The translations under genes and the position numbers were made by a program. From positions 1 through 12,919 of the forward strand of contig JACQVL010000244.1 in the NCBI GenBank assembly GCA_016209865.1: a stretch of DNA of 12,919 nucleotides, written 5' to 3'. Below the pieces are notes generated by a model that was given only the letters and a program-made list of their open reading frames with translations, did no database searches and had not been told where the DNA came from. Positions 508-12,364 of the stretch are shown one piece after another. Origin of the DNA: Candidatus Latescibacterota bacterium (GTDB taxonomy: Bacteria; JAAXHH01; JACQVL01). The stretch's first letter is position 1, and each line of letters starts with the position of its first letter.

Positions 508-608
508 CAGGGGGCAGAGGGGAAAAAGAGCAAAACCATAGAGGGGTGGAAGAGCAGAAGGGATGAAATCTTTCTCTCCTCTGCCCCCCTGCTCCCCTGC
601 CCCTCTGC
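506..608. repeat. G/C-word inverted repeat between convergent genes
   Basis: The 15 bases at 506-520 (AGCAGGGGGCAGAGG) are complementary to 578-593 apart from one extra C. They bound a roughly 57-base loop. The right side continues as a period-8 array, CTGCCCCC / CTGCTCCC / CTGCCCCT / CTGC (581-608); the left side is two near-copies of a 7-mer, GCAGGGG / GCAGAGG. The element fills most of the 114-base gap between the converging dehydrogenase and DUF2911 genes, and includes the last two bases of the dehydrogenase stop codon. It could act as a bidirectional terminator or mRNA 3'-end structure, but there is no clean T-run. Confidence 0.7.
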
Positions 609-621
609 GGTTTTTGTCCCG

Positions 622-1179
622 TCATTCCGTCTTAAACGTCGCCTCCAGCTTGTGAGGCCCCCACGTCGCGGTCAGACGCCCACCGTCTCCTTCGCTCTTG
701 AGTTCGATGATGAATCGTTCCACCGATGGGTTGCCCTTCGTGTAGGTGAAGGGCACCTCCAGAACGTCGTTCTCACGCTTCGCCCCCGGCATACCCCAGA
801 CGCCCACTTCTTTATTAAAAATGAGCGACCATTTATCCCCTTCGACGTGCTTCGCCCAGGCGCTGTAACTCCCCTTGGGCAATTTCGCCTTCCCGAAGAC
901 GAGGCTCGCCTCCGTCTTCAATGTGGTCGATTCGTTCATCCCAAACCGCCAGACGAACCCGGCTGGGGCCATCCCCAGCATGTCCCGTCCCTTGAGCTCC
1001 GGTCGACCGTAATCGATGGAGATTTTCTTTCCCTTCACCGTGATCTCTACCATCCCGCGGTTACTTGCCATGGCCTGTGCTGGGGCGCTGGTCTGGGCTG
1101 TGACCTCATGCAGACCGATGAACAGGGCGAGGCACGAGAGGGTAGACAGGCCAAGCCATCGACGGGTACGACGCATCAT
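622..1179 (-). CDS. DUF2911 domain protein, exported (paralog 1)
   Basis: A 185-residue protein of unknown biochemical function from the DUF2911 family. The start is set by AGGAGG (1186-1191) six bases before the ATG at 1179; the frame stays open further upstream but without support. Residues 1-29 form a Sec-type signal: an RRTRR basic start, a hydrophobic stretch LSTLSCLALFIGL and a likely cleavage after VTA. The mature domain shows ISIDYGRP (53-60), VWRFGMNESTTL (76-87), LPKGSYSAWA (100-109) and the C-terminal WGPHKLEATF (173-182), all also found in the neighbour at 1350-1874. Probably periplasmic. It lies 170 bases downstream of its paralog on the same strand, so co-transcription is possible although a hairpin lies between. 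No catalytic residues are assigned. Confidence 0.85.
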   Translation of the reverse strand: MMRRTRRWLGLSTLSCLALFIGLHEVTAQTSAPAQAMASNRGMVEITVKGKKISIDYGRPELKGRDMLGMAPAGFVWRFGMNESTTLKTEASLVFGKAKLPKGSYSAWAKHVEGDKWSLIFNKEVGVWGMPGAKRENDVLEVPFTYTKGNPSVERFIIELKSEGDGGRLTATWGPHKLEATFKTE

Positions 1180-2674: not shown

Positions 2675-3727
2675 ATGAGTCACACGTATCGCGTCGGGAT
2701 CGTGGGAACGGGCGGGATCGCGCACGCGCACGGCCGGGCCTGCCGGCATCTGGCGGACGTCGACCTCCGGGCGGTCTGTGACGTCAACCAGGAAGCGGTG
2801 CGGCGGTACGGGGATCAGTTCAACGTCGAACGGCGCTACACCAGCCTGGACGCGATGCTCGACGCGGAAGACCTGGATATCGTCATCGTGTCGACCTGGG
2901 GACACTCCCATGCCGAGGTCAGCAACGCGGTCGCCCGGTCACACAAAGCGCGCGCCATCCTGTGCGAAAAACCGCTCTGCCGGAATGCAGCGGAAGCGCA
3001 GGAGATGATCATGATCGCGCGCAAGCACGGGGTGTTGCTCGCCGAAGCGTTCAAATTCCGTCACCATCCGCAGCACCTGCGGGCGAAAGAGATCGTGGAT
3101 TCCGGCCGGCTGGGCGACCTGCAGGTCATCCGGAGCACGTTCTCCGGGTTTACCCCACCGGAATACCGGAAGCCGGAGAACAACTGGCGGTTCAACCGAG
3201 GCGTCGGGGGCGGCGTGATCTACGACATGGGCTGTTACAACATCCACCATGCCCGTTTCATCACCGGCGCAGAGCCGGTTCGAGTCTTTGCGACCGGATC
3301 CATCGGTTCCGCCTCTCAGGTCGATGAGTCAGTCGCCGCCGTCCTCGAATTCCCCGGCGACATCATCGCACAGTTTACCCTGAGCTTCCGCGCGTCCGGG
3401 TCGCAGTCGGCCGAGGTCTACGGCACACGGGGATGCCTCCGGTTCGACATGGCCTGGAACAACGAGAATCATCCGGTCTCGTTCCGCCTGTCCTACGGGG
3501 ACGGGAGCGCCGAGACGCATGAGTTGGCCCCGGTCGACCAGTTCGTCCTCCAGCTCCGCCATCTCTGCGACTGCCTGGAGACCGGTCATCCGCACCGGAT
3601 TCCGCCGGAGAACAGCCTGAACCAGATGCGGGTGATCGACGCGTTGTACGAGTCGATGTCGACCGGCCGGCCAGTCTCCCTGATGACACAGGGCACCGAC
3701 CACCGACCCCCGATCACCGACCACTGA
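2675..3727 (+). CDS. Gfo/Idh/MocA-family oxidoreductase (first of three)
   Basis: A 350-residue NAD(P)-dependent oxidoreductase of the glucose-fructose oxidoreductase / inositol dehydrogenase family. It shows the Rossmann motif VGIVGTGGIA (7-16), the nucleotide-end aspartate in VCDVN (34-38), the family lysine in CEKP (97-100), and the C-terminal domain motif GGGVIYDMGCYNIHH (178-192) with the D..H arrangement used in catalysis. The start follows GAGGAG (2664-2669), five bases before ATG, and lies 11 bases after the RraA stop. The last eleven or so codons (GTDHRPPITDH) are encoded by a heptamer tandem array, so this tail is probably not part of the conserved fold. The substrate is likely a sugar, polyol or a derivative, but cannot be specified. 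Confidence 0.9.
   Translation: MSHTYRVGIVGTGGIAHAHGRACRHLADVDLRAVCDVNQEAVRRYGDQFNVERRYTSLDAMLDAEDLDIVIVSTWGHSHAEVSNAVARSHKARAILCEKPLCRNAAEAQEMIMIARKHGVLLAEAFKFRHHPQHLRAKEIVDSGRLGDLQVIRSTFSGFTPPEYRKPENNWRFNRGVGGGVIYDMGCYNIHHARFITGAEPVRVFATGSIGSASQVDESVAAVLEFPGDIIAQFTLSFRASGSQSAEVYGTRGCLRFDMAWNNENHPVSFRLSYGDGSAETHELAPVDQFVLQLRHLCDCLETGHPHRIPPENSLNQMRVIDALYESMSTGRPVSLMTQGTDHRPPITDH
3695..3727 (+). repeat. Heptamer tandem array forming a gene's 3' end
   Basis: ACCGACC / ACCGACC / CCCGATC / ACCGACC / ACTGA: four heptamers and a partial copy with no spacer, ending exactly at the TGA of the oxidoreductase gene. Since 7 is not a multiple of 3, gain or loss of one unit would change the reading frame of the tail. 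Confidence 0.8.
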
Positions 3728-3737
3728 GGATCGAGCC

Positions 3738-4511
3738 ATGTCACTCAGAGCCATTCGAGGTCTGCTCATCGACCTGGACGGCGTCCTGTACATCGGCCGC
3801 CGGACGATTCCGGGCGCACTTCAGGCGATCAAGGCCATCAAGGCACGGCGTTTCCCGTACCGCTTCGTCACCAACACGACACGGATGGGCCGAAAGACGA
3901 TCGCGCAGCACCTCATCGGCCTGGGGTTCCCCGTCACCCCGTCCGAGATCATCAGCCCGCCGTCCGCCGCGGCGCAGTACATCCGGCAACAGGGGAAAAG
4001 CCGGTATTATCTCTTAGCCAATCGGTATATCCAGGACGCGTTCATGGGCCTGACGGAGACGGACGATCATCCTGACTTCGTGGTCGTGGGCGATCTGGGC
4101 AGACGGTTCACGTTCGATGCGTTGAACCGGGCATTTCGATTGATCTTGGCAGGAGCCGACATCCTCGCCCTCCAGAAGAACCGGTACTGGACGACGGAGA
4201 CCGGCCCCGTCCTGGATGCCGGGTCGTTCGTGGCCGCGCTCGAGTACGCGACCGGCAAGCGTGCGGTCGTGGTGGGAAAGCCGGAACAGGCGTTCTTTGA
4301 GTTAGCCCTGGCCGAACTGAACCTCCGTCCGTTCCAGGTCGCCATGGTCGGGGATAACCTCGACTCCGATGTGGGAGGAGCCCAGCAGGCTGGGCTGCAA
4401 GGGGTGCTCGTCCGGACCGGCAACTACCGCCCGGAGCATCTGACAGAATCCACGGTCAAGCCGGACCTCATCATCGATTCGATCGCGGCCCTGCCGGTTC
4501 ATCTGCCGTAG
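3738..4511 (+). CDS. HAD-IIA family phosphatase, LHPP-like
   Basis: A 257-residue haloacid-dehalogenase-type hydrolase of subclass IIA. Motif I is DLDGVLY (12-18, nucleophile Asp12 and acid Asp14), motif II VTNTTR (44-49), the motif III lysine lies in GKPE (180-183) and motif IV is GDNLDSD (205-211). The C2-type cap lies between motifs II and III. FVTNTTR and the RYWTTETGPVLDAGSFVAAL region (149-168) resemble the LHPP group (phospholysine/phosphohistidine and pyrophosphate phosphatases) more than the phosphoglycolate or NagD groups. The start overlaps the operon: tGAGGA (3726-3730) overlaps the preceding stop codon and is 7 bases before ATG, so translation is probably coupled. In this context it may remove phosphate from a sugar-phosphate intermediate (inference). 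It ends at a convergent junction with a long inverted repeat. Confidence 0.85.
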   Translation: MSLRAIRGLLIDLDGVLYIGRRTIPGALQAIKAIKARRFPYRFVTNTTRMGRKTIAQHLIGLGFPVTPSEIISPPSAAAQYIRQQGKSRYYLLANRYIQDAFMGLTETDDHPDFVVVGDLGRRFTFDALNRAFRLILAGADILALQKNRYWTTETGPVLDAGSFVAALEYATGKRAVVVGKPEQAFFELALAELNLRPFQVAMVGDNLDSDVGGAQQAGLQGVLVRTGNYRPEHLTESTVKPDLIIDSIAALPVHLP

Positions 4512-4528
4512 CCCCTCACTTCCCCCCA

Positions 4529-4616
4529 CCACCGGGCAGATGGGTAGTGGGCAGGTAGGCAGTAGACGGGGGAACGGCTTCTACTGCCCACTGCCTATTG
4601 CCCACCTGCCCGGTGG
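4529..4616. repeat. Long imperfect inverted repeat of 7-base words at a convergent junction
   Basis: The arm from 4529 (CCACCGGGCAG) pairs with the arm ending at 4616 (CTGCCCGGTGG). Complementarity continues inward with a few mismatches as far as GGCAGTAGA / TCTACTGCC, giving about 37 paired positions and a loop of only about 14 bases. The right arm reads CTACTGC / CCACTGC / CTATTGC / CCACCTGC, a period of 7. It occupies most of the gap between the HAD phosphatase and sat, which converge, so it could terminate or protect both transcripts. Confidence 0.8.
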
Positions 4617-4634
4617 AGAGGAAGGGGAGGAGGA

Positions 4635-5858
4635 TTAAGCCGACCGATAAAAATCCACTAACACCTGCCACGCCTTCTTCCCCATGAAGCCATCCGGCGG
4701 GGCCTGACCGTTGCGGGCGTAAGCGCGCATCTGCGTGCCTGAGATGAAGTCAAAATCGGCCGCTCGGGACGGATCGAAGAACGCCATCTTGCCGGCCTTC
4801 TTATCGTAAGCCGCGACCTTGAACGGCAGGATTTCCAGCTTCTCCAGGCCGGGCGCCATCTGGAGCACGACCTGGCCGTGGTCCGGATGGTACAGGTCGT
4901 CCGACTGCCCTTTGGCGTTGAGGCGTTCGGGATGTTTCATCCCGGCGGGGTCGCGTCCGACGATGTAGAAGTTCGACCCGGCGTTCAGCCGCGCTTTCGC
5001 GTGCCACTGGACTTCCGTCGGCCCGGCGTAGAGCATCGGGCTGGGGAAGATGGCGACGACCGTCGTCTCAGGGTCGAGGATGCCCTCATCCAGGACGGCG
5101 TCGTGCTGCTGCATCCGGACGTGGGTGGGCACGTCATCCGGTTTTGTCCACCCACCTAACGGGTGCAGCAGCAGGATGGGGTTCTGGTAGCCGCGTTGTA
5201 AGAGCCGTTCCCGCGTGTCCGTCATCAGCAGGGCGTGCCCGTTGTGGATGGGGTTGCGCAACTGGAACGCGTAGACCGCATCTGCTCCGCGTCGTGCGAA
5301 CTCGGCGCGCAGGTCGGCCGGGCTGAGCCGATAGTGGTCGAGGCCGTCTCCATAGGTGATGGGTTCGAGCACCGCCAGATCGCCGCCGACCAGCCAGTCC
5401 CCGGATGCGTTGATGATCTCGATGTACGGATGCCCCGGGTGGGTCGTCCCGAAGCTGCGGCTGGCGCGTTCTTCCTTACGGTGCGGGTAGAACTCCGGGT
5501 TGCGCAGGATGGCTAACGGCTCGCCGGACGGCTTCCGGAGGGTGATGGCCGTCTCTTTAGCGAGCCGTTCTTTGTCCTCCGTCGATACGGCTAAGACGAT
5601 CGGGATAGACATGTTGACGACCGAACCGTCCGGCAGGCGCAGGCAGTTGAAGTGCAGCGCCTGCAGGTATTCGCGTTCGCGCATGAAGCCCCGCAGTGGG
5701 CTGGCCCAGCCCTCGGAGAGGACATGCACCCACTGGACATCGATCTCGGTGATCGTGACGCTCTTCAGGCTTTGCGCCTCTGCGATCTTGGCACCCCGTA
5801 ATGCTTCAGGGACGATCAGGTTGACCAGCACCCCGCCGTCCGGTTCGATCAACGACAT
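4635..5858 (-). CDS. sat: ATP sulfurylase (sulfate adenylyltransferase), eukaryote-like type
   Basis: A 407-residue homo-oligomeric cytoplasmic enzyme that joins sulfate and ATP to give APS and pyrophosphate, the entry step of sulfate activation. The nucleotide-binding signature [14 protein letters not shown] (199-212), then HPLGGW (232-237), IVGRDPAGM (299-307) and FISGTQMR (371-378) are all intact. These stretches, and the segment around [16 protein letters not shown] (271-286), read almost like the sulfurylase domain of animal PAPS synthase and plant ATP sulfurylase. No APS-kinase domain is attached and no cysC lies nearby. ATG at 5858 is preferred (GAGGAG at 5868-5873, nine-base spacer); GTG at 5864 would leave only three bases. 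It is a single minus-strand gene between a convergent phosphatase and a divergent tRNA. An assimilatory role is likely because no dissimilatory genes are seen. Confidence 0.93.
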
Positions 5859-5886
5859 AGACACTGACTCCTCGACTGAGAAAAGG

Positions 5887-5914
5887 TTGACAGAGAGACC
5901 TTAACGTGTATATT
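5887..5914 (+). promoter_or_regulatory. Sigma70-type promoter of tRNA-Arg(TCT)
   Basis: TTGACA (5887-5892, perfect consensus), a 16-base spacer and TATATT (5909-5914). Transcription would start near 5921, about 18 bases before the mature tRNA 5' end. The same region must also hold the promoter of the divergent sat gene, for which I see no equally clear motif. Confidence 0.7.
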
Positions 5915-5938
5915 GATGACGATTCACCATGTTGTCAT

Positions 5939-6011
5939 GCCCCAGTAGCTCAGTGGATAGAGCATCGGACTTCTAATCCGAGGGTCGCAGGTTCAAATCC
6001 TGCCTGGGGTA
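5939..6011 (+). tRNA. tRNA-Arg (anticodon TCT)
   Basis: A complete cloverleaf. The acceptor stem is GCCCCAG with CTGGGGT (one G-U pair), discriminator A6011. The D stem is GCTC/GAGC, the anticodon stem TCGGA/TCCGA with loop CTTCTAA and anticodon TCT (5972-5974), the variable loop has five bases, and the T arm is GCAGG-TTCAAAT-CCTGC. CCA is not encoded. It reads AGA/AGG. A consensus promoter lies just upstream. Confidence 0.96.
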
Positions 6012-6190
6012 TCGTTCCAAAATATAGCACGGCGTGTTCTGACACAAGCAGAATATCGTGCAGGTCCTCCTTTCGTGACGGAACTCTTGTGAGACGGGAG
6101 GTGGGGCATTCTCGTGTCATCGGATTTGACTCTTCTTGTTCTTTCGCCCTGAGCTGAGGGATAGATGAACATTCACGACGGAGGTGTCTT

Positions 6191-6526
6191 ATGCTGTACC
6201 TGGTTACGGGTGAATACGTGGAGGTAGGCGGCGTACTTCCCCCGGAGCAAGTGGCGGCGAACCTGGAACAGGTCGTTCTTCCCAGTCTGGCGATGATCGC
6301 CACCTGGGTGGAGACGGGGAAAGCGAAAGGCGGGGTGTTTGCCGGAGAACGGGCGGGGGTCTTTGTCTTGGAAGCCGCCTCCAATGAGGAGGTAGGCCAA
6401 CTGTTAGCGAGTCTACCGTTCTGGGGGCTGGTCAAGTGGCACGTCAGGCCGCTCCAGACGTGGCGATCCGCCATAGAGCGGGATCGGAGCGTCGTCCAAC
6501 ACCTCAAGGCGAAGGGGAAACCGTAA
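6191..6526 (+). CDS. Small muconolactone-isomerase-like (ferredoxin-fold) protein
   Basis: A 111-residue protein. GGAGG (6180-6184) lies six bases before ATG. The order of elements resembles the muconolactone delta-isomerase / dimeric alpha-beta barrel group: an N-terminal strand MLYLVTGEYVE, a helix, a strand FVLEA (72-76), a helix SNEEVGQLLASLP (78-90) and a final strand VKWHVRPLQ (95-103). In this fold the SN(D/E)E..LL..LP block is characteristic. There is no aromatic catabolism gene next to it, so isomerase activity is not claimed; it may be a binding or stress-related member of the fold. It lies between two tRNA-Arg genes on the same strand, 179 bases after the first and 48 before the second, and could share a transcript with the second. 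There is no signal peptide or membrane segment. Confidence 0.7.
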   Translation: MLYLVTGEYVEVGGVLPPEQVAANLEQVVLPSLAMIATWVETGKAKGGVFAGERAGVFVLEAASNEEVGQLLASLPFWGLVKWHVRPLQTWRSAIERDRSVVQHLKAKGKP

Positions 6527-6574
6527 GGACATCGGGGGCTCTGCCTGCCCCGGCGTTGCAGGCCGACCGGAATC

Positions 6575-6649
6575 GCGCCCATAGCTCAGTTTGGAGAGAG
6601 CAACTGACTTCGGATCAGTAGGTCGGGGGTTCGAATCCCTCTGGGCGCG
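6575..6649 (+). tRNA. tRNA-Arg (anticodon TCG)
   Basis: A complete cloverleaf: acceptor GCGCCCA/TGGGCGC, discriminator G6649, D stem GCTC/GAGC with the 10-base loop AGTTTGGAGA, anticodon stem ACTGA/TCAGT, loop CTTCGGA and anticodon TCG (6610-6612), and T arm GGGGG-TTCGAAT-CCCTC (one G-U pair). CCA is not encoded. A TTTTT run follows at 6650-6654 and may end transcription. No promoter-like sequence is visible in the GC-rich 48 bases before it, where GCCTGC/GCAGGC (6543-6563) can form a hairpin. Co-transcription with the small gene upstream is therefore likely. Confidence 0.95.
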
Positions 6650-6709
6650 TTTTTGTATTTCAAGCACGTGGAAACCCACGTTCGCCCTTGCCCGGAAAGG
6701 ACAGAGACG

Positions 6710-7795
6710 ATGTCATGCGTACGGATCGGAGTGGTCGGTTGCGGCGCGATCGCGCAAATCCAGCATCTCCCCCATCTGAAGGAACTCCGCGACCGGTTCG
6801 ACTTAGCGGCGGTCTGCGATGTCTCCCGTCGATTAGTTGAGTTCATCGGCGACCTGTACGGCGTCCCCCACCGGTTCACCGATTACCGCGAGATGCTGAA
6901 CGCGAACTTAGATGCAGTGCTGCTGTGCTTCGCCGATCCCAAGACCGAAGTCGCAGTCGCCGCCCTGCGCGCGGGAAAACACGTCTTCATCGAGAAACCA
7001 ATGTGTTTCTCCGTCCAGGAGGCCGACCGCATCCTCAACGCGGCTCAGACATCCGGGAAGACCCTGATGGTCGGCTACATGAAGCAGCACGACCCCGGCT
7101 ATCAGTACGCCCTCACGCAGGTCCGCCAGATCCCCGACATCCGGTTCATCCAGGTCAACCATCTCCACCCGAGCAACGATCTCCACCTCAAAGAATTCAC
7201 CCTCTACCGGTTCGACGACGTGCCGCAGGAGGCGATCGAGCACACCAGCCAGTCGCGCGAGGCCGCCGTGCGAGAGGCGATCGGGGAGGTGTCCGACGAG
7301 ACCCGCCGGGTGTTCTTCCTCCTGTCGGGGAGCATGATCCATGACATCAGCAGTCTCCGTGGGATGTTCGGTCCGCCCGCCCGCGTGGTCAGCGCGGAGG
7401 TGTGGCGCGACGGCGGGTGCATCACGACCGTCTTCGCGTACGACGGCGACAAACGGTGCGTGGCCACCTGGACCGACCTCCCCGAACTGTGGGACTTCCG
7501 TGAGACCTTAGAGGTGTACGGTGGTGCGCAACGGGTCATCATCCGGTTCCCCACCGGGTTCGCCCGCGGGACTCCCTCCCCGGTGATCGTGCAAGGGATG
7601 GAAGAGGGGAACATTCCCTGGAAGAAGGAAGTGATCGTCAATACTCAGAATTCTTTTAAGCTGGAATTGATCCACTTCCATGAGTGCATCGTCAATGACA
7701 CACCCCCACTGACGGATGGAGTCGGGGCGCGGCACGACGCGGCGCTCGTCCGGGAGATCGTCCAGACGTACCTCAAAACAACGTTAGCACGTTGA
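6710..7795 (+). CDS. Gfo/Idh/MocA-family oxidoreductase (second of three)
   Basis: A 361-residue NAD(P)-dependent oxidoreductase. The start at ATG 6710 has AAGGA (6697-6701) eight bases upstream; an in-frame TTG at 6653 lies against the tRNA 3' end and is rejected. The Rossmann motif is IGVVGCGAIA (6-15), the aspartate VCDVS (35-39), the family lysine IEKP (94-97), and the C-terminal domain has GSMIHDISSLRGMFG (207-221) with the conserved His211-Asp212. Residues about 152-205 hold a long charged segment between the domains (HPSNDLHLKEF ... EAIGEVSDETRR), longer than in the other two family members here. It probably heads a transcript with the TIM-barrel isomerase 42 bases downstream. The substrate is unknown, but pairing with a sugar-isomerase-like protein suggests a polyol or keto-sugar. 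Confidence 0.9.
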   Translation: MSCVRIGVVGCGAIAQIQHLPHLKELRDRFDLAAVCDVSRRLVEFIGDLYGVPHRFTDYREMLNANLDAVLLCFADPKTEVAVAALRAGKHVFIEKPMCFSVQEADRILNAAQTSGKTLMVGYMKQHDPGYQYALTQVRQIPDIRFIQVNHLHPSNDLHLKEFTLYRFDDVPQEAIEHTSQSREAAVREAIGEVSDETRRVFFLLSGSMIHDISSLRGMFGPPARVVSAEVWRDGGCITTVFAYDGDKRCVATWTDLPELWDFRETLEVYGGAQRVIIRFPTGFARGTPSPVIVQGMEEGNIPWKKEVIVNTQNSFKLELIHFHECIVNDTPPLTDGVGARHDAALVREIVQTYLKTTLAR

Positions 7796-7823
7796 CGCGT
7801 TTGAACGTTAAAAACAGGAAGGG

Positions 7824-7841
7824 ATGCGAACAATTCGATGA
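7824..7841 (+). other. Possible five-codon leader ORF overlapping the next start codon
   Basis: ATG CGA ACA ATT CGA TGA (MRTIR) is preceded closely by AGGA (7816-7819). Its TGA overlaps the ATG of the TIM-barrel gene as ATGA. The main gene's own ribosome binding site is otherwise poorly spaced (the purine run ends about 14 bases before its ATG), so terminating ribosomes on this mini-ORF could help re-initiation. It could also be chance. Confidence 0.25.
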
Positions 7842-8776
7842 AACTTCTCTTCTGTACACTGACGTTACGTCCTTATCTGGAGCCGGCATCACGGGAGCGG
7901 GGCATCCCGTCCCCGGATGAACGGAGGCGGGTGTGGGACTGGCTCGTCGCGCATGGGTTCGACGGGATCGACCTCGGCGAGACATGGCTAAACTTCTACG
8001 ATGCCCCGGACGATGAGCTGGTCGCGGTCGGCCAGGAAGTCCGGGACCACGGCCTGGCGATCGGGGCGGTGACTGTTCTCCGGAAGATCATCACCCCGCC
8101 GGCGGATGAGCACGTCCAGATCGAGAACCGGCGGAAGCTCCGGCGGGCGGTGGAAGCGGCGGCGTTGGTCGGCGCGCCCATCGTCAACATGTCGATCTCC
8201 CCGGAACCCTGGCAGGTGAAGGTGCGGGAGCAGGACCTGCGCGGCCAGGCGGACCCGGTGGCCAGCAGCACACGGGCCGATGAGGAAGATTACCGCATCG
8301 CCGCGGAATTCCTGGCCTCGCTCGCTCTCGACGCGGAGCAGCAGCATATCGGACTGACGTTGGAACTCCACCAGAACAGCATCATCGACACTCCGGACAG
8401 GATGCTCCACCTGCTTCGTCACATCGACCATCCCAACGTGAAAGTCAACCCCGACCTGGGGAATTTCTACTTCGCCTTTGCGACCCCTCCCTGCTCCTGG
8501 GAAGATGCAGTGACCCAATTGGCCCGGCACACCGACTTCTGGCACGTGAAGAACATTCAACGGGTGTACGTCGAGTCCGAAGACCGGGCGTACCTGATCA
8601 ACGCTCCGCTCGACCAGGGGATGATCGACTACCGCCGCGCGTTGCGGATGATGGCGGCGCAGGGGTTCGACGGGTGGATCAGCATCGAGATGGCGGGACC
8701 GGGCGATCCGTTCGCGTGCATTCTGGCGGGGAAGGAGTATCTGGTGGGGTTGCTGAGGGAGATAGGAAAGACGTAA
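7838..8776 (+). CDS. Xylose-isomerase-like TIM-barrel protein (sugar phosphate isomerase/epimerase)
   Basis: A 312-residue protein of the AP-endonuclease-2/xylose-isomerase-like TIM-barrel superfamily, which includes inosose dehydratase, hydroxypyruvate isomerase and D-tagatose/psicose epimerases. Visible metal-site and barrel motifs in order are GFDGIDLGETW (40-50), LTLELHQN (173-180, Glu176), KVNPDLGNFY (202-211, Asp206), FWHVKNIQ (234-241, His236) and GWISIEMAGPGDPF (279-292, Glu284). The Glu-Asp-His-Glu set is the usual divalent-metal arrangement. Length is typical. It is 42 bases after a Gfo/Idh/MocA gene, a combination common in inositol and rare-sugar catabolism (family knowledge); the actual substrate is not determined. 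Its start has a purine-rich stretch but with long spacing. Confidence 0.85.
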   Translation: MKLLFCTLTLRPYLEPASRERGIPSPDERRRVWDWLVAHGFDGIDLGETWLNFYDAPDDELVAVGQEVRDHGLAIGAVTVLRKIITPPADEHVQIENRRKLRRAVEAAALVGAPIVNMSISPEPWQVKVREQDLRGQADPVASSTRADEEDYRIAAEFLASLALDAEQQHIGLTLELHQNSIIDTPDRMLHLLRHIDHPNVKVNPDLGNFYFAFATPPCSWEDAVTQLARHTDFWHVKNIQRVYVESEDRAYLINAPLDQGMIDYRRALRMMAAQGFDGWISIEMAGPGDPFACILAGKEYLVGLLREIGKT

Positions 8777-8807
8777 ACACTGCTCTCACGAAGCCGTGGA
8801 GGGAATG

Positions 8808-10109
8808 ATGAGCGAAACGGTCCGTGACGACCAGCAGGTCAGCGACCTCTCCGTCCCGCCTCAGCCCGGCCTGCTGCGCCGCGTGCAGGGCGGGCTTTCC
8901 CTGTTAGGGCCGGGGATTGCGGTCGCGGCCACGGGTGTGGGGGCCGGTGATCTGATCTCCAGCACGACGGCTGGCGCGCAATTCGGTACGCTGCTGCTCT
9001 GGTCTGCCCTCTACAGCGCCGTCCTCAAGTTCGTCCTCAACGAAGGGGTCGCCCGCTGGCAGCTCGCCACCGGCACCACCCTCCTCGAAGGGTGGGTGGA
9101 ACACCTCGGCCGGCCGGTTCAGTACTACTTCCTCCTCTACCTGATCGGATGGTCGTTCTTAGTCGGCGGTGGGCTCATCTCCTCGTGCGGGCTGGCTGCG
9201 CACACGATGATGCCTGCGCTCTCGGTGAACACATGGGCAATCCTGCACTCGGTCGTCGGTGCGGCGATTGTGTTGTGGGGGCGATACAGTTTGTTCGAGC
9301 GGATCATGAAAGTGCTGATCGGTGTGATGTTCTTTTCGTTCCTGATCTGCGCATGGGCGCTGCGTCCGGGGTTCATCACGCTCCTCCGTGGCCTGGTCAT
9401 CCCGTCCATCCCGGCCGGCTCGGTGAAGTCCATCCTGAGCGTCATCGGAGGGGTAGGCGGCAGCCTGACGATCCTGTGCTACGGGTACTGGATTCGGGAG
9501 TCAGGCCGCGCAGGTGCCGGATGGCTCCGTGGCGTCCGCATCGACCTGGGGTCTGCCTATAGCCTGACCGGCTTCTTCGGCGTCGCGGTCATGGTGCTGG
9601 CCGCGCAGGTGCAGCCTGAGGTGGTGAAAGGGTCGGGCATCGTCCTGGGGCTGGCCGACCGGATGGTAGATGTCCTGGGTCCGACAGGCCGCTGGGCGCT
9701 CTACGTCGGCTTCTGGGGGGCGGTCGTGACCTCATTGCTGGGCGTCTGGCAGGGCATTCCCTACATGTTCGCCGATTTCGTCGCCTTGATGAAGCGGCTC
9801 AGCGTCGAGGAGCGGGCCGCGCTGGTCAGCTCACAATCCCCCTACTACCGGGCGTTTTTGTTCTTTCTTACGGTTCCCACGATGCTTCTGCTGACGTTCG
9901 GCAGGCCGGTGACGGTCGTGCGCGTGTACACGATCGCTGGCGCGCTGTTCATGCCGTTCTTAGCGGCCACTCTGCTGTACATGAACTCCCGGCGCGCCTG
10001 GGTCGGCAGCCTGCGCAGCGGCTGGGTGACGAACGTGTTGCTGGTGATGGCCCTTGCGGTCTTTGCGTACCTCAGCATCAACGGGGTCGTGGAAGGCGCA
10101 GGGAATTGA
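8808..10109 (+). CDS. Nramp-family membrane transporter lacking the canonical metal-site motifs
   Basis: A 433-residue integral membrane protein with about 11 hydrophobic segments. The N-terminal segment GPGIAVAATG (34-43) followed by AGAQFG (55-60) aligns with transmembrane helix 1 of Nramp divalent-metal/proton symporters. However, the DPGN metal-binding tetrad reads GAGD (45-48), and the helix 6 MPH motif region reads GGSLTILCYGYWIRE (217-231) with no Met-Pro-His. The fold family is clear but the classical Mn/Fe site is absent, so the substrate may be another cation or something else. ATG 8808 is chosen because GGAGGG (8798-8803) has a four-base spacer; GTG 8796 and ATG 8805 are in frame. 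It follows the isomerase by 31 bases, so it may be co-transcribed and serve the same pathway (inference). Confidence 0.8.
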   Translation: MSETVRDDQQVSDLSVPPQPGLLRRVQGGLSLLGPGIAVAATGVGAGDLISSTTAGAQFGTLLLWSALYSAVLKFVLNEGVARWQLATGTTLLEGWVEHLGRPVQYYFLLYLIGWSFLVGGGLISSCGLAAHTMMPALSVNTWAILHSVVGAAIVLWGRYSLFERIMKVLIGVMFFSFLICAWALRPGFITLLRGLVIPSIPAGSVKSILSVIGGVGGSLTILCYGYWIRESGRAGAGWLRGVRIDLGSAYSLTGFFGVAVMVLAAQVQPEVVKGSGIVLGLADRMVDVLGPTGRWALYVGFWGAVVTSLLGVWQGIPYMFADFVALMKRLSVEERAALVSSQSPYYRAFLFFLTVPTMLLLTFGRPVTVVRVYTIAGALFMPFLAATLLYMNSRRAWVGSLRSGWVTNVLLVMALAVFAYLSINGVVEGAGN

Positions 10110-10112
10110 AGC

Positions 10113-10160
10113 AGTGACGAGTAAAACTCGGGGTACGGGATTCGGGGTACGGGATTCGGG
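10113..10160 (+). repeat. Heptamer array after the transporter gene
   Basis: TCGGGGT / ACGGGAT / TCGGGGT / ACGGGAT / TCGGG (10128-10160): two alternating heptamers giving an exact 14-base repeat 2.4 times. Just before it, AGTGACGAGT (10113-10122) is one and a half units of the different heptamer used at 12231-12261. The array starts a few bases after the transporter stop codon. It is not self-complementary. Confidence 0.85.
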
Positions 10161-10199
10161 AAGGGCAGGACAATAAACAGAACCGATCTCTCTGGTGTC

Positions 10200-10219
10200 A
10201 TTCCCGCGAAAGCGGGAAT
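10200..10219 (+). repeat. Dispersed hairpin repeat, copy 2
   Basis: ATTCCCGC (10200-10207), GAAA, GCGGGAAT (10212-10219): a perfect 8-bp stem with a GNRA-type GAAA loop. It is followed by CCATC and the TGGAG ribosome binding site (10227-10231) of the dioxygenase gene, the same order as copy 1 relative to its gene. Confidence 0.85.
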
Positions 10220-10240
10220 CCATCTCTGGAGTTCCCACTC

Positions 10241-10993
10241 ATGAACGATAATCTCAAGACTGCGATCGATCACCTTTCCACGTACGGCTATTGTCTGCTG
10301 GAAGACCGGATTCCGGCAGAGATGGCCCGGAGCATGGCGGAACGGTTCCTCGAACTGCACGCCGACCCCAAGAACAAGTCCTACATCAGCGGCGACGAGC
10401 ACTATCAGACGTTTTTCGGGATGATGAACTTCGACGATCGTGTCTGGGCGTGTGCCAGTCATCCGGATACAGTCGCCATCGCACGGCACTTTCTGGGACC
10501 GACCTGCCGCGTCGTCGAGGCGTGCTCCAAGCCCACCTGGCCGGGCGCGCCGCCTCAGGGCCTGCATGCGGATTCTGCCGGGAATTTCGCGCAGGTTCCC
10601 GATGTGCCGTGGATGGTCAACACCATCTGGATGCTGACGGATTTTACCGTCGAGAACGGGGCGACGGGCGTCGTCCCGATGAGCCATCGCTCGCGGATGA
10701 AAGGCCCTCCCCCGGACCTCACTCTGGACAGCCCGCTCATCAAGCCGATCACCGGCCGTGCTGGCTCGGTGATGCTGTGGCACGGTGGGCTGTTTCACAT
10801 GGCCCGCGGCAACACGAGCGGCCAGATTCGTGTCGGCCTCAACATCGCCTACTACCCGCGCTGGTTCAACAACTGGGTCGAGGGCGGCCATCAGCCAGTC
10901 TGGCCGGAGACGTACGTGCGGATGCCGGATGAGATGAAGCGGCTGTGTCCCGGCCTCCGTGGCCGCAACCGCGCGGAGATGTACGAACAGTAA
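10241..10993 (+). CDS. Phytanoyl-CoA dioxygenase (PhyH)-family Fe(II)/2-oxoglutarate oxygenase
   Basis: A 250-residue cytoplasmic non-heme iron oxygenase. It would couple oxidation of 2-oxoglutarate to succinate with hydroxylation of an unknown substrate. The iron triad is visible as HAD (His109, Asp111) in QGLHADSAGN and the distal His186 in LWHGGLFHMARG; Arg197 in QIRVGLNIAY is positioned to hold 2-oxoglutarate. NTIWMLTDFTVENGATGVVP (127-146) is the family's double-stranded beta-helix core. The length is usual for bacterial PhyH proteins. ATG 10241 has TGGAG (10227-10231) nine bases upstream, just after a hairpin repeat. Bacterial relatives act on very diverse small molecules, so phytanoyl-CoA is not implied. 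The oxidoreductase that follows may be a partner (inference). Confidence 0.88.
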   Translation: MNDNLKTAIDHLSTYGYCLLEDRIPAEMARSMAERFLELHADPKNKSYISGDEHYQTFFGMMNFDDRVWACASHPDTVAIARHFLGPTCRVVEACSKPTWPGAPPQGLHADSAGNFAQVPDVPWMVNTIWMLTDFTVENGATGVVPMSHRSRMKGPPPDLTLDSPLIKPITGRAGSVMLWHGGLFHMARGNTSGQIRVGLNIAYYPRWFNNWVEGGHQPVWPETYVRMPDEMKRLCPGLRGRNRAEMYEQ

Positions 10994-11042
10994 CAGGGAT
11001 AGACAGGATAAACAGGATTAGTCCCATCCTGTCCATCCCTGT
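10993..11042 (+). repeat. Inverted repeat between the dioxygenase and oxidoreductase genes
   Basis: ACAGGGATAGACAGGAT (10993-11009) pairs with ATCCTGTCCATCCCTGT (11026-11042) at 16 of 17 positions around a 16-base loop. The left side is also a tandem of ACAGGGATAG / ACAGGATAA / ACAGGATTAG. The left arm starts on the last base of the dioxygenase stop codon. No T-run follows, so it may be an mRNA-processing or attenuating hairpin rather than a simple terminator. Confidence 0.85.
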
Positions 11043-11060
11043 CGCAAAGGCTCCTTGCCC

Positions 11061-12242
11061 ATGACACGCACGATCGGGGTTGGCATCATCGGTATGGGAT
11101 GGATGGGGACGGTCCACAGTCGCTCGTACCTGCAGATTCCGGTGCGGTTTCCGGAGAGCGGCCTGTGTCCTCAGCTCGTCATCTGCGCCGATGACGCCGA
11201 GGCGCGCGCACGCGGCGCGCAAGAGATGTTAGGGTTCGCGCGGTCCACGACGGACTTGCGACAGGTCATCGCCGACCCGGACGTGGAAGTGGTGAACATC
11301 ACCACGCCGAACAACATGCACGTGGAGATCGTACGAGCTGCCGCCGCCGCAGGCAAGCACATCTTCTGCGAGAAGCCGGTCGGTCGTTCCCCCCAGGAAA
11401 CCGCTGAGATCGAGCACGTGGCGCACCAGGCCGGGGTGCTGACGTGGGTGGGGTACAATTACCGCTGGGCGCCCGTCGTGCAGTACGCGCGGCAATTGAT
11501 TCAGGAAGGAAGACTGGGCAGGCTGACGCACTATCGGGGCCGGTTCTTCGCCGGGTACGCCAGCAACCCGCATGGCGTCCTGTCGTGGCGTTTCCAGCGC
11601 GACCTGGCCGGACTGGGCGCGCTGGGCGACCTGATGTCGCATGCCGCCGATATGGCGCATCTGATCGCCGGGCCGATCGACCGGGTCGTCGGCAACCGCG
11701 AGACGTTCATCGCAGAGCGCCCGATGGCGACGCCGGGGGAGGGGACGCACTTTTCGGTCAGCACCGGCGGCCCAACCGCGCCGGTCACGAACGAAGACTA
11801 CGTGGGGGCGCTGGTGCGATTCCAGAACGGCGCACATGGGACGCTCGAAGTGTGCCGGGTCATCCAGGGCCCACAGTGTCAGATGGCGTTCGAGGTCCAC
11901 GGGACAGAAGGGGCGATCCGCTGGGATTTCGAGCGGATGAATGAGCTGCACCTGTACCGCGCTGACGGGGAGGACGCACAGCACGGCTACACGCGCATCA
12001 TGAGCGGTCCGGCGCACCCGTTCCACGCCCACTTCAACCCCGGCCCGGCGGTCGGTCTTGGGTATGACGATCTGAAGGTGATCGAAGCGTATCAGTTCCT
12101 CCAATCCATCGCGAACGGCCGGCAAGGGGAACCCGGGTTCGCTGAGGCGCTGGCCGTGGCGAACGTCCTGGCCGCGATCGAACGCTCGTGGGACACGCAG
12201 CGGTGGGAAGAAGTCCGGTCGCTCAAAATCAGTGACAAGTGA
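11061..12242 (+). CDS. Gfo/Idh/MocA-family oxidoreductase (third of three)
   Basis: A 393-residue NAD(P)-dependent oxidoreductase, the longest of the three. The Rossmann motif is [10 protein letters not shown] (7-16), followed by the family lysine in CEKP (103-106), YNYRWAP (132-138), and the substrate-domain motif [21 protein letters not shown] (184-204) with Asp190, His194 and His200. The GDL.SHA.D pattern resembles the myo-inositol / scyllo-inositol dehydrogenase side of the family, but the exact substrate is open. An insert at about 205-245 ([11 protein letters not shown] ... TGGPTAPV) is typical of a longer subgroup. ATG 11061 is preferred over TTG 11055; the ribosome site is weak (AAGG at 11047-11050, 10-base spacer) and partly covered by a possible small hairpin. 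The last codons (SDK-stop) are already part of a heptamer array. Confidence 0.9.
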
Positions 12243-12350
12243 CGAGTGGCGAGTGACGAGTTAAAAACAGAATGGATTCCCGCTTGCGCGGGAATGACGG
12301 ACAATACTAAGCGAACTGGTCTTACTTGTCACTCGTCACTTGTCACTCAT
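12231..12350. repeat. Two inverted heptamer arrays flanking a hairpin repeat
   Basis: The left array is AGTGACA / AGTGACG / AGTGGCG / AGTGACG / AGT (12231-12261). The right array is ACTTGTC / ACTCGTC / ACTTGTC / ACTCAT (12324-12350). The 18 bases 12231-12248 are the perfect complement of 12330-12347. The left array includes the stop codon of the upstream oxidoreductase gene; the right ends just before the AAGGAA ribosome site of the next gene. Hairpin repeat copy 3 lies near the centre. The whole intergenic region is therefore a composite foldback. Confidence 0.9.
12276..12295 (-). repeat. Dispersed hairpin repeat, copy 3
   Basis: ATTCCCGC (12276-12283), TTGC, GCGGGAAT (12288-12295): a perfect 8-bp stem. 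The flanking ATGG and GACGG match the flanks of copies 1 and 2 in the opposite sense, so the element points away from the downstream gene here, unlike the other two. Confidence 0.85.
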
Positions 12351-12364
12351 AAGGAATCTTCGCC

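What the first reader, a model, noticed from the sequence alone, without database searches (positions are those of the whole stretch)
3695..12350. A family of 7-base tandem arrays with different unit sequences at gene junctions
Four junctions carry arrays with the same period (7) but unrelated units: ACCGACC (3695-3727), CTACTGC/CCACTGC (4529-4616), TCGGGGT/ACGGGAT (10128-10160) and AGTGACR (12231-12261 and inverted at 12324-12350). The AGTGACG unit also appears once at 10113. Shared period without shared sequence suggests a common generating mechanism, not copies of one element. Cyanobacteria have heptanucleotide STRR repeats of this style; seeing them alongside this gene set is unexpected. 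Mechanism and role are unknown.
Basis: partly seen in the sequence, partly recalled or inferred. Interest (0 to 1): 0.7.

Follow-up and report, generated by a model that had tools for sequence, protein, structure and literature searches.

The report
Heptamer arrays bordering genes, outward-facing
In this uncultured bacterium about a quarter of the gaps between genes carry short repeats of a seven-letter DNA word, made from at least ten different words that all obey the same placement and direction rule, which extends a known but unexplained kind of bacterial repeat and shows that the usual four-stranded-DNA explanation cannot be the whole story.

Summary
In detail: all four period-7 arrays are real, and they are a sample of a genome-wide system. 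In a 609 kb sample of the genome, 167 period-7 arrays were found (roughly 1,000 genome-wide by extrapolation) against none in shuffled sequence. At least ten unit families occur, AGTGACN the commonest; 91% of arrays are non-coding.

Added here: (1) Arrays abut gene ends (median 4 nt after stops, about 15 nt before starts), and the G-rich, C-poor strand reads away from the nearer gene in 118/142 cases (p=4e-16), whatever the unit. (2) Neighbouring arrays therefore converge, and some 37 junctions form stems of about 24 bp. (3) A sibling genus obeys the same rule with other units, some of period 8 (37/42). (4) Arms are conserved while the loops between them are mostly unique. (5) No AGTGACN array can form a G-quadruplex. 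(6) No RAYT or reverse transcriptase was detected in the 83%-complete genome.

The closest known kind is the intergenic heptamer repeats of Xanthomonas and Nostoc (Rehm 2015), which share placement, strand rule and convergent pairs. This is a multi-unit, largely non-G4 variant in a Latescibacterota-like lineage, most likely small selfish or neutral elements tolerated at gene borders; how they spread is unknown.

The parts
510..608 (.). period-8/16 purine-rich arm (GGGGGCAGAGGGG...) and inverted pyrimidine-rich arm (TCTCCTCTGCCCCCCTGCTCCCCTGCCCCTCTGC) at the junction of the 1-507 gene and the 622-1179(-) gene
   Evidence: z -2.9
3694..3727 (-). solo ACCGACC array (G strand GGTCGGT on the minus strand); it contains the stop of the 2675-3727 gene and lies 10 nt upstream of the 3738 start; no hairpin
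   Evidence: relatives of this gene match only up to about 3657-3661, so the array encodes the C-terminal tail
4524..4554 (+). left arm (GGGCAGATGGGTAGTGGGCAG) of a family A hairpin between convergent genes
   Evidence: whole hairpin -82.7 kcal/mol, z -7.3
4555..4590 (+). apical region of the family A element (GTAGGCAGTAGACGGGGGAACGGCTTCTACTGCCCA), conserved among about 30 copies
4591..4621 (-). right arm of the family A hairpin
10113..10122 (+). AGTGACGAGT module, stacked outside the CGGGGTW array with an AAAA linker
10128..10161 (+). TCGGGGTACGGGAT array (2.4 x 14-mer), left arm of family B; no matching right arm here
10196..10223 (+). 28-nt core palindrome TGTCATTCCCGCGAAAGCGGGAATCCAT
   Evidence: 132 exact copies of its 23-mer core in the genome, 0 in 15 other genomes of the phylum; sharp ends
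10993..11042 (.). ACAGGGATAGACAGGAT...ATCCTGTCCATCCCTGT hairpin on the other side of the 10241-10993 gene
   Evidence: z -6.3
12231..12261 (+). AGTGACN array, left arm of family C; contains the TGA stop (12240-12242) of the 11061-12242 gene
12272..12298 (-). second copy of the core palindrome, inside the loop of the family C hairpin
12324..12350 (-). inverted AGTGACN array, right arm, ending about 15 nt before the 12365 start

Best explanation
The arrays are the arms of small non-coding intergenic repeat elements of the known heptamer-repeat kind. A typical full element reads: A-rich linker, 3-5 copies of a C-poor heptamer, A-rich linker, a 40-150 nt loop (often holding a 28-nt palindrome), T-rich linker, and an inverted heptamer array. 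SHOWN: genome-wide abundance; multiple unit families; position against gene ends; G-strand-outward direction; convergence of neighbours; stacked modules in a fixed order (GGTCGGT outside AGTGACN, 14:1); copied families A and B; loops mostly unique; lineage restriction. INFERRED: elements entered short gaps between genes (array-free tandem gaps have a median of 26 nt), so that the two arms end up beside the two flanking genes; the start-side arm was lost more often than the stop-side arm; and the elements persist as selfish or neutral DNA rather than as selected RNA hairpins. The agent that copies or writes the arrays is not identified.
For: 108 period-7 arrays against 0 in shuffles. 152/167 arrays are non-coding, array-bearing tandem gaps have a median of 112 nt against 26 nt, and frequency is equal (23-24%) at tandem, convergent and divergent junctions. 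Outward direction 118/142; solo arrays clearly nearer one gene 49/55. Same-unit neighbours 18 convergent: 1 divergent: 0 same-direction. The two outermost arrays of a junction share a unit family in 23/32 cases, against 6/22 for the two sides of a gene, so the junction is the unit. 14/49 apparently solo arrays have a degenerate inverted partner, against 0-2% in controls; partners are rarer when the far end is a start (7/35 v 7/14). Families A and B share whole bodies at 77-97% identity between loci. Exact AGTGACNx3 has 246 places in this genome, 0 in 15 others of the phylum and 0 in the reversed control. No excess of G.U over A.C on the sense strand of 37 stems (23 v 28) speaks against selection on RNA pairing.
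Against: Loops are unique in about 23 of 28 paired cases, which is odd if whole elements were recently copied. Left and right arms of one element are not more alike in variant order than arms of different elements (p=0.10). Single arrays without a loop in gaps under 60 nt are 19:2 G-sense, a transcription-linked bias that simple insertion does not predict. No empty site or target duplication could be examined, and no mover was found: no Y1_Tnp, no RVT_1, one IS110, in an 83%-complete assembly. Some rows of the outward test are not independent (two arrays per junction), though the solo subset is significant on its own.
Confidence: 0.5

Rival explanations
1. Selected RNA elements: the stems act at transcript ends or between cistrons (terminators, mRNA 3'-end stabilisers, 5'-UTR insulators), and placement at stops and upstream of ribosome sites reflects function.
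For: Strong stems at two window junctions (z -8.7 and -7.3); arrays 0-7 nt after stops; strand rule.
Against: Array frequency is the same at divergent junctions (9/37), where no 3' end exists; many arrays have no partner; mismatched-unit partners occur; no wobble bias on the sense strand (23 v 28; limited power).
Confidence: 0.2
2. Small arm modules (array plus A-rich linker) are themselves the dispersing or locally generated unit, laid down with a fixed polarity at gene ends; hairpins are a by-product of two outward-facing arms meeting in one gap.
For: Unique loops, uncorrelated arms, stacked modules in fixed order, solo arrays obeying the rule, identical rule for unrelated units and for period 8 in G013.
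Against: 72% of junctions pair arms of the same unit, which independent arrival does not predict; families A and B clearly copy whole bodies.
Confidence: 0.2
3. G-quadruplex elements, as proposed for GGGNATC repeats in Xanthomonas and Nostoc.
For: Same placement, strand rule and modal copy number of four (PMC4692102); 18/167 arrays fit a G3 quadruplex motif.
Against: 0 of 63 arrays with AGTGAC units fit even a two-tetrad motif, and only 18/167 arrays fit G3, yet all families follow the same rule.
Confidence: 0.03
4. Slippage-driven contingency loci (phase variation).
For: Tandem repeats near genes; Mrazek's slippage idea for heptamers as cited in PMC4692102.
Against: Narrow copy number (mostly 3-5, maximum 9), only 19/167 perfect arrays, alternating variants (GAG 18 v 4.5 expected, GGG 2 v 12.7), about 1,000 arrays spread over the genome rather than at a few surface-structure genes.
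Confidence: 0.04

Closest known systems
G-rich heptameric intergenic repeats of Xanthomonas (GGGAATC) and Nostoc/Anabaena PCC 7120 (GGGGAYT), Rehm et al. 2015 (PMC4692102)
   Same: Period 7, mode of four units, intergenic, G strand sense near stops and antisense upstream of starts, convergent inverted pairs (70-75 in Xanthomonas), spread over the genome, not tied to mobile elements.
   Different: One unit there, ten or more here; most units here cannot form quadruplexes; A-rich linkers and stacked modules; period 8 also used in a sibling genus; different phylum.
TAACTGA heptamer repeats of Beggiatoaceae, cyanobacteria and Bacteroidetes, MacGregor 2015 (PMC4679880)
   Same: Short intergenic heptamer arrays, patchy across phyla.
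   Different: In the Guaymas Maribeggiatoa genome mostly forward-oriented just upstream of starts and almost never inverted pairs; here both gene ends and paired.
STRR heptanucleotides of Calothrix (Mazel 1990) and small dispersed repeats (SDR) embedded in heptamers of Nostoc punctiforme (Elhai 2008) (from memory; the primary papers are not in the library)
   Same: Several different heptamer units in one genome; a small hairpin lying within heptamer arrays.
   Different: The core palindrome TGTCATTCCCGCGAAAGCGGGAATCCAT was not compared with the SDR sequences; mobility not shown here.
REP/REPIN palindromes with RAYT transposases; GTAG/CGTC-tagged REPs (PMC3733652)
   Same: The 28-nt core palindrome is REP-like: small, abundant, extragenic, sharp ends.
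   Different: No Y1 transposase detected in the genome; ends are TGTC/CCAT, not GTAG or CGTC; the heptamer arms have no REP counterpart.

Membership tests
Heptameric intergenic repeats (Rehm 2015 type) | genome-wide excess of period 7 | tested here: met
   108 v 0 shuffled; 2 in 394 kb of 13 unrelated genomes
Heptameric intergenic repeats (Rehm 2015 type) | intergenic; G strand sense at stops and antisense upstream of starts | tested here: met
   152/167 non-coding; 78/88 at stops and 40/54 at starts outward
Heptameric intergenic repeats (Rehm 2015 type) | convergent pairs | tested here: met
   18:1:0 for same-unit neighbours
Heptameric intergenic repeats (Rehm 2015 type) | G-tracts able to form a quadruplex | tested here: not met
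   18/167 overall, 0/63 for AGTGAC arrays; met only by minority families
Heptameric intergenic repeats (Rehm 2015 type) | same junctions occupied in a close relative | not testable with these tools
   no genome of the same family held
REP/REPIN-RAYT | RAYT (Y1_Tnp) gene in the genome | tested here: not met
   0 matches to PF01797, 83% complete assembly
REP/REPIN-RAYT | GTAG or CGTC tag at one end of the palindrome | tested here: not met
   consensus TGTC...CCAT over 54 copies
MITE | terminal inverted repeats | tested here: inconclusive
   arms are inverted but not co-varying, often single
MITE | target-site duplication / empty site | not testable with these tools
   no near relative held
SDR within heptamers (Elhai 2008, recalled) | 20-30 nt hairpin embedded in heptamer arrays | tested here: inconclusive
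   33/48 palindromes lie within 120 nt of an array, always on the inner side (49:0), but the outer side is mostly coding, so the side is partly forced
Intrinsic terminator | enriched at 3' ends, absent from divergent junctions | tested here: not met
   23-24% of tandem, convergent and divergent junctions alike
Contingency-locus SSR | near-perfect, length-variable arrays | tested here: not met
   19/167 perfect, 3-5 units; length variation between strains not tested

The most novel reading that the evidence does not exclude
A unit-independent array-writing activity: something adds 3-5 copies of a C-poor 7- or 8-nt unit with the G-rich strand always pointing out of the gene, the polarity of telomere repeats, with convergent pairs laid out like head-to-head telomere fusions. 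Arrays would then be scars of healed or joined DNA ends at gene borders, rather than copied elements.
Probability: 0.04. Interest if true: 0.9.

Novelty: new variant of a known kind. Interest (0 to 1): 0.5.

Why it matters
Excess of heptamers in bacterial intergenic DNA has been noted since 2007 without explanation (as reviewed in PMC4692102). This genome separates the variables: many units, most unable to form quadruplexes, follow one placement and strand rule, and a sibling genus does it with period 8 as well. That removes G-quadruplex formation and any particular unit as the general cause. It leaves polarity relative to gene ends, length of about 28 nt and C-poorness as the features a mechanism must explain, which can be tested in culturable Xanthomonas or cyanobacteria.

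Tried and rejected
Chance and low-complexity artefact: rejected (0 period-7 arrays in shuffles). Arms maintained as matched hairpins: not supported (p=0.10). RNA-pairing selection: no wobble bias. Terminator role: no junction-type bias. G4: rejected as common cause. RAYT, reverse transcriptase or IS110 as mover: none or one gene. Gene-level pairing (same unit on both sides of one gene): 6/22, near chance. In Xanthomonas, repeat junctions are more conserved than controls, which argues against the break-scar idea. Nostoc plasmids were sought as a comparison but the accessions tried are not held, and low-complexity BLAST gave nothing. Palindrome always on the inner side of arrays (49:0): not counted as evidence because the outer side is mostly gene. 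A-rich flanks occur on both sides of arrays, so the inner AAAA alone is not diagnostic.
Full report
OBSERVATION. Tandem Repeats Finder confirms period-7 arrays at all four places named. Two of them are pairs of inverted arms rather than single arrays: 4524-4554/4591-4621 and 12228-12254/12324-12350. As RNA the 4505-4632 stretch folds at -82.7 kcal/mol (z -7.3) and the 12228-12352 stretch at -61.8 kcal/mol (z -8.7); the 3695 and 10128 arrays form no hairpin of their own. Two more low-complexity hairpins sit at other junctions, 510-608 and 10993-11042. Gene calling places the arrays at gene ends. The stop codon of the 11061-12242 gene lies inside the 12231 array, and the 3694-3727 array encodes the C-terminal tail and stop of the 2675-3727 gene; matches to relatives end before both.

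ORGANISM. The nearest named matches of the 8802-10106 protein (69-73% identity) are Candidatus Latescibacterota/Handelsmanbacteria MAGs. The window's genome (G000, 3.75 Mb, 356 contigs, 83% complete) is the only one of its family held; relatives are of the same order.

GENOME-WIDE. Sixty contigs (596 kb) were sampled, plus the window (609 kb together). At TRF score 40 or more there are 227 arrays in the contigs: 108 of period 7, 33 of period 14, 7 of period 21, against 0 of period 7 in shuffles. Sibling genus g3 has 1 in 400 kb, and sibling G013 has 14 of period 7 and 16 of period 8 in 183 kb. An independent periodicity scan gave 80 segments for period 7, 11 for period 8 and about 6 for every other period from 4 to 12; six of each were runs of N. 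At score 36 there are 167 merged arrays, about 1,000 if extrapolated to the genome. Units: AGTGACN, GGTSRTC, GGATTTT, AAGGACG, CAGGGGT, CGGGGTW, GGATTGC, GGGAAAT, GAGTGAA, GGGCAGT and others. Thirteen unrelated genomes gave 2 period-7 arrays in 394 kb. Exact AGTGACN x3 occurs at 246 places in G000 and none in 15 other genomes of the phylum; GGTSRTC x3 at 37 places and none.

ANATOMY. Of 167 arrays 152 are non-coding, although gaps between called genes make up only 8.4% of the sequence. They occupy 23-24% of tandem, convergent and divergent junctions alike; tandem gaps with an array have a median of 112 nt, without 26 nt. The main rule: the strand richer in G than C reads away from the nearer gene end in 118 of 142 arrays (p=4e-16), in 78/88 near stops (median 4 nt) and 40/54 near starts (median 14.5 nt). 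Among solo arrays clearly nearer one gene it is 49/55. The same holds in G013 with different units and periods 7 and 8: 37/42, p=4e-7. In unrelated contigs of the IMG/VR collection that carry AGTGACN arrays it is 17/22, p=0.017, with cruder gene calls. As a consequence neighbouring arrays converge: 18 convergent, 1 divergent, 0 same-direction for equal units; 13 convergent, 0 divergent, 6 same-direction for different units. Arrays are flanked by A-rich linkers on the G strand (AAAARC[array]AAAA), and modules stack in fixed order, GGTCGGT outside AGTGACN 14:1.

WHAT IS COPIED. Families A (4512-4637, about 30 copies, conserved apex GTGGACGGGGGAACGGCTTCYAC) and B (10107-10236) share whole bodies between loci; B bodies carry three different right arms at different loci. 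For paired arrays in general, however, about 23 of 28 loops are unique in the data held. The two arms of one AGTGACN element do not share variant order beyond chance (p=0.10), while variant strings are far from random: GAG 18 v 4.5 expected, GCG 11 v 1.9, GGG 2 v 12.7. The junction is the unit: its outermost arrays share a unit in 23/32 cases, the two sides of a gene in 6/22. Apparently solo arrays often have a worn inverted partner: 14/49 against 0-2% in array-free gaps, less often when the far end is a start. The core palindrome TGTCATTCCCGCGAAAGCGGGAATCCAT has 132 exact copies of its 23-mer core in G000 and none in the other 15 genomes, with sharp ends.

MECHANISM. Shown: position, polarity, copying of some families, lineage restriction, absence of detected Y1_Tnp and RVT_1, and one IS110 gene. 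Inferred: small selfish or neutral DNA elements entering short gaps, with later erosion. RNA-level selection is not supported by junction type or by wobble pairs on the sense strand of 37 stems of mean length 24 (23 v 28), though that test has modest power. G-quadruplexes cannot be the common cause (0/63 AGTGAC arrays, 18/167 overall). Slippage alone does not fit the narrow 3-5 unit range and the scarcity of perfect arrays. What remains unexplained is the 19:2 sense-strand bias of single arrays in gaps under 60 nt, and why loops are unique while arms are not.

COMPARISON. Rehm et al. 2015 (PMC4692102) describe GGGAATC and GGGGAYT heptamers in Xanthomonas and Nostoc with the same placement, strand rule, modal copy number of four and, in Xanthomonas, convergent pairs; repeat junctions there are more conserved than controls. 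MacGregor 2015 (PMC4679880) describes TAACTGA arrays mostly upstream of starts. STRR and SDR papers on cyanobacteria are cited from memory only. The present case is therefore a new variant of a known kind, and its value lies in showing that one rule covers many units and two periods.

Noticed in passing
L314, L315, L316, L320, L328, L330, L335, L350, L351, L352, L360, L362, L368 (IMG/VR contigs): At least 13 viral contigs share a near-identical stretch GCCTAGTGTCAAATCGAA-(AGTGACC/A)n-GACAAGGAAGGAAGGAACC: a conserved feature of one phage group holding the same heptamer.
   Followed up: no
window 10241-10993: A phytanoyl-CoA-dioxygenase-like gene sits between the transporter and the Gfo/Idh-like gene that are neighbours in sibling genus g3, and is flanked by a repeat on each side (10113-10223 and 10993-11042), as if inserted at a repeat-bearing junction.
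   Followed up: partly
L198-L207 (G013): Sibling genus uses both 7- and 8-nt units (TGATTTGT, GGCAGGTG, TTTGTAC and others) with the same outward, convergent layout.
   Followed up: yes
window 5938-6013 and 6574-6650: Two tRNA-Arg genes (anticodons TCT and TCG) about 560 nt apart, with one small gene between them.
   Followed up: no
L341 (IMG/VR contig end), L322: Long AGTGACG arrays (8 to about 17 units) in contigs of about 69% G+C, longer than the AGTGACN arrays sampled in G000, some paired with a distant inverted array.
   Followed up: no
L141, L149, L162, L175: Another dispersed repeat, around GAGACCCTTCGCTGCGCTCAGGGTGACATGG, recurs inside loops between heptamer arms.
   Followed up: no
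AGTGACN arms, G000: Internal units alternate (GAG, GCG) and uniform arrays (GGG) are depleted, suggesting perfect tandem arrays are lost or avoided.
   Followed up: partly
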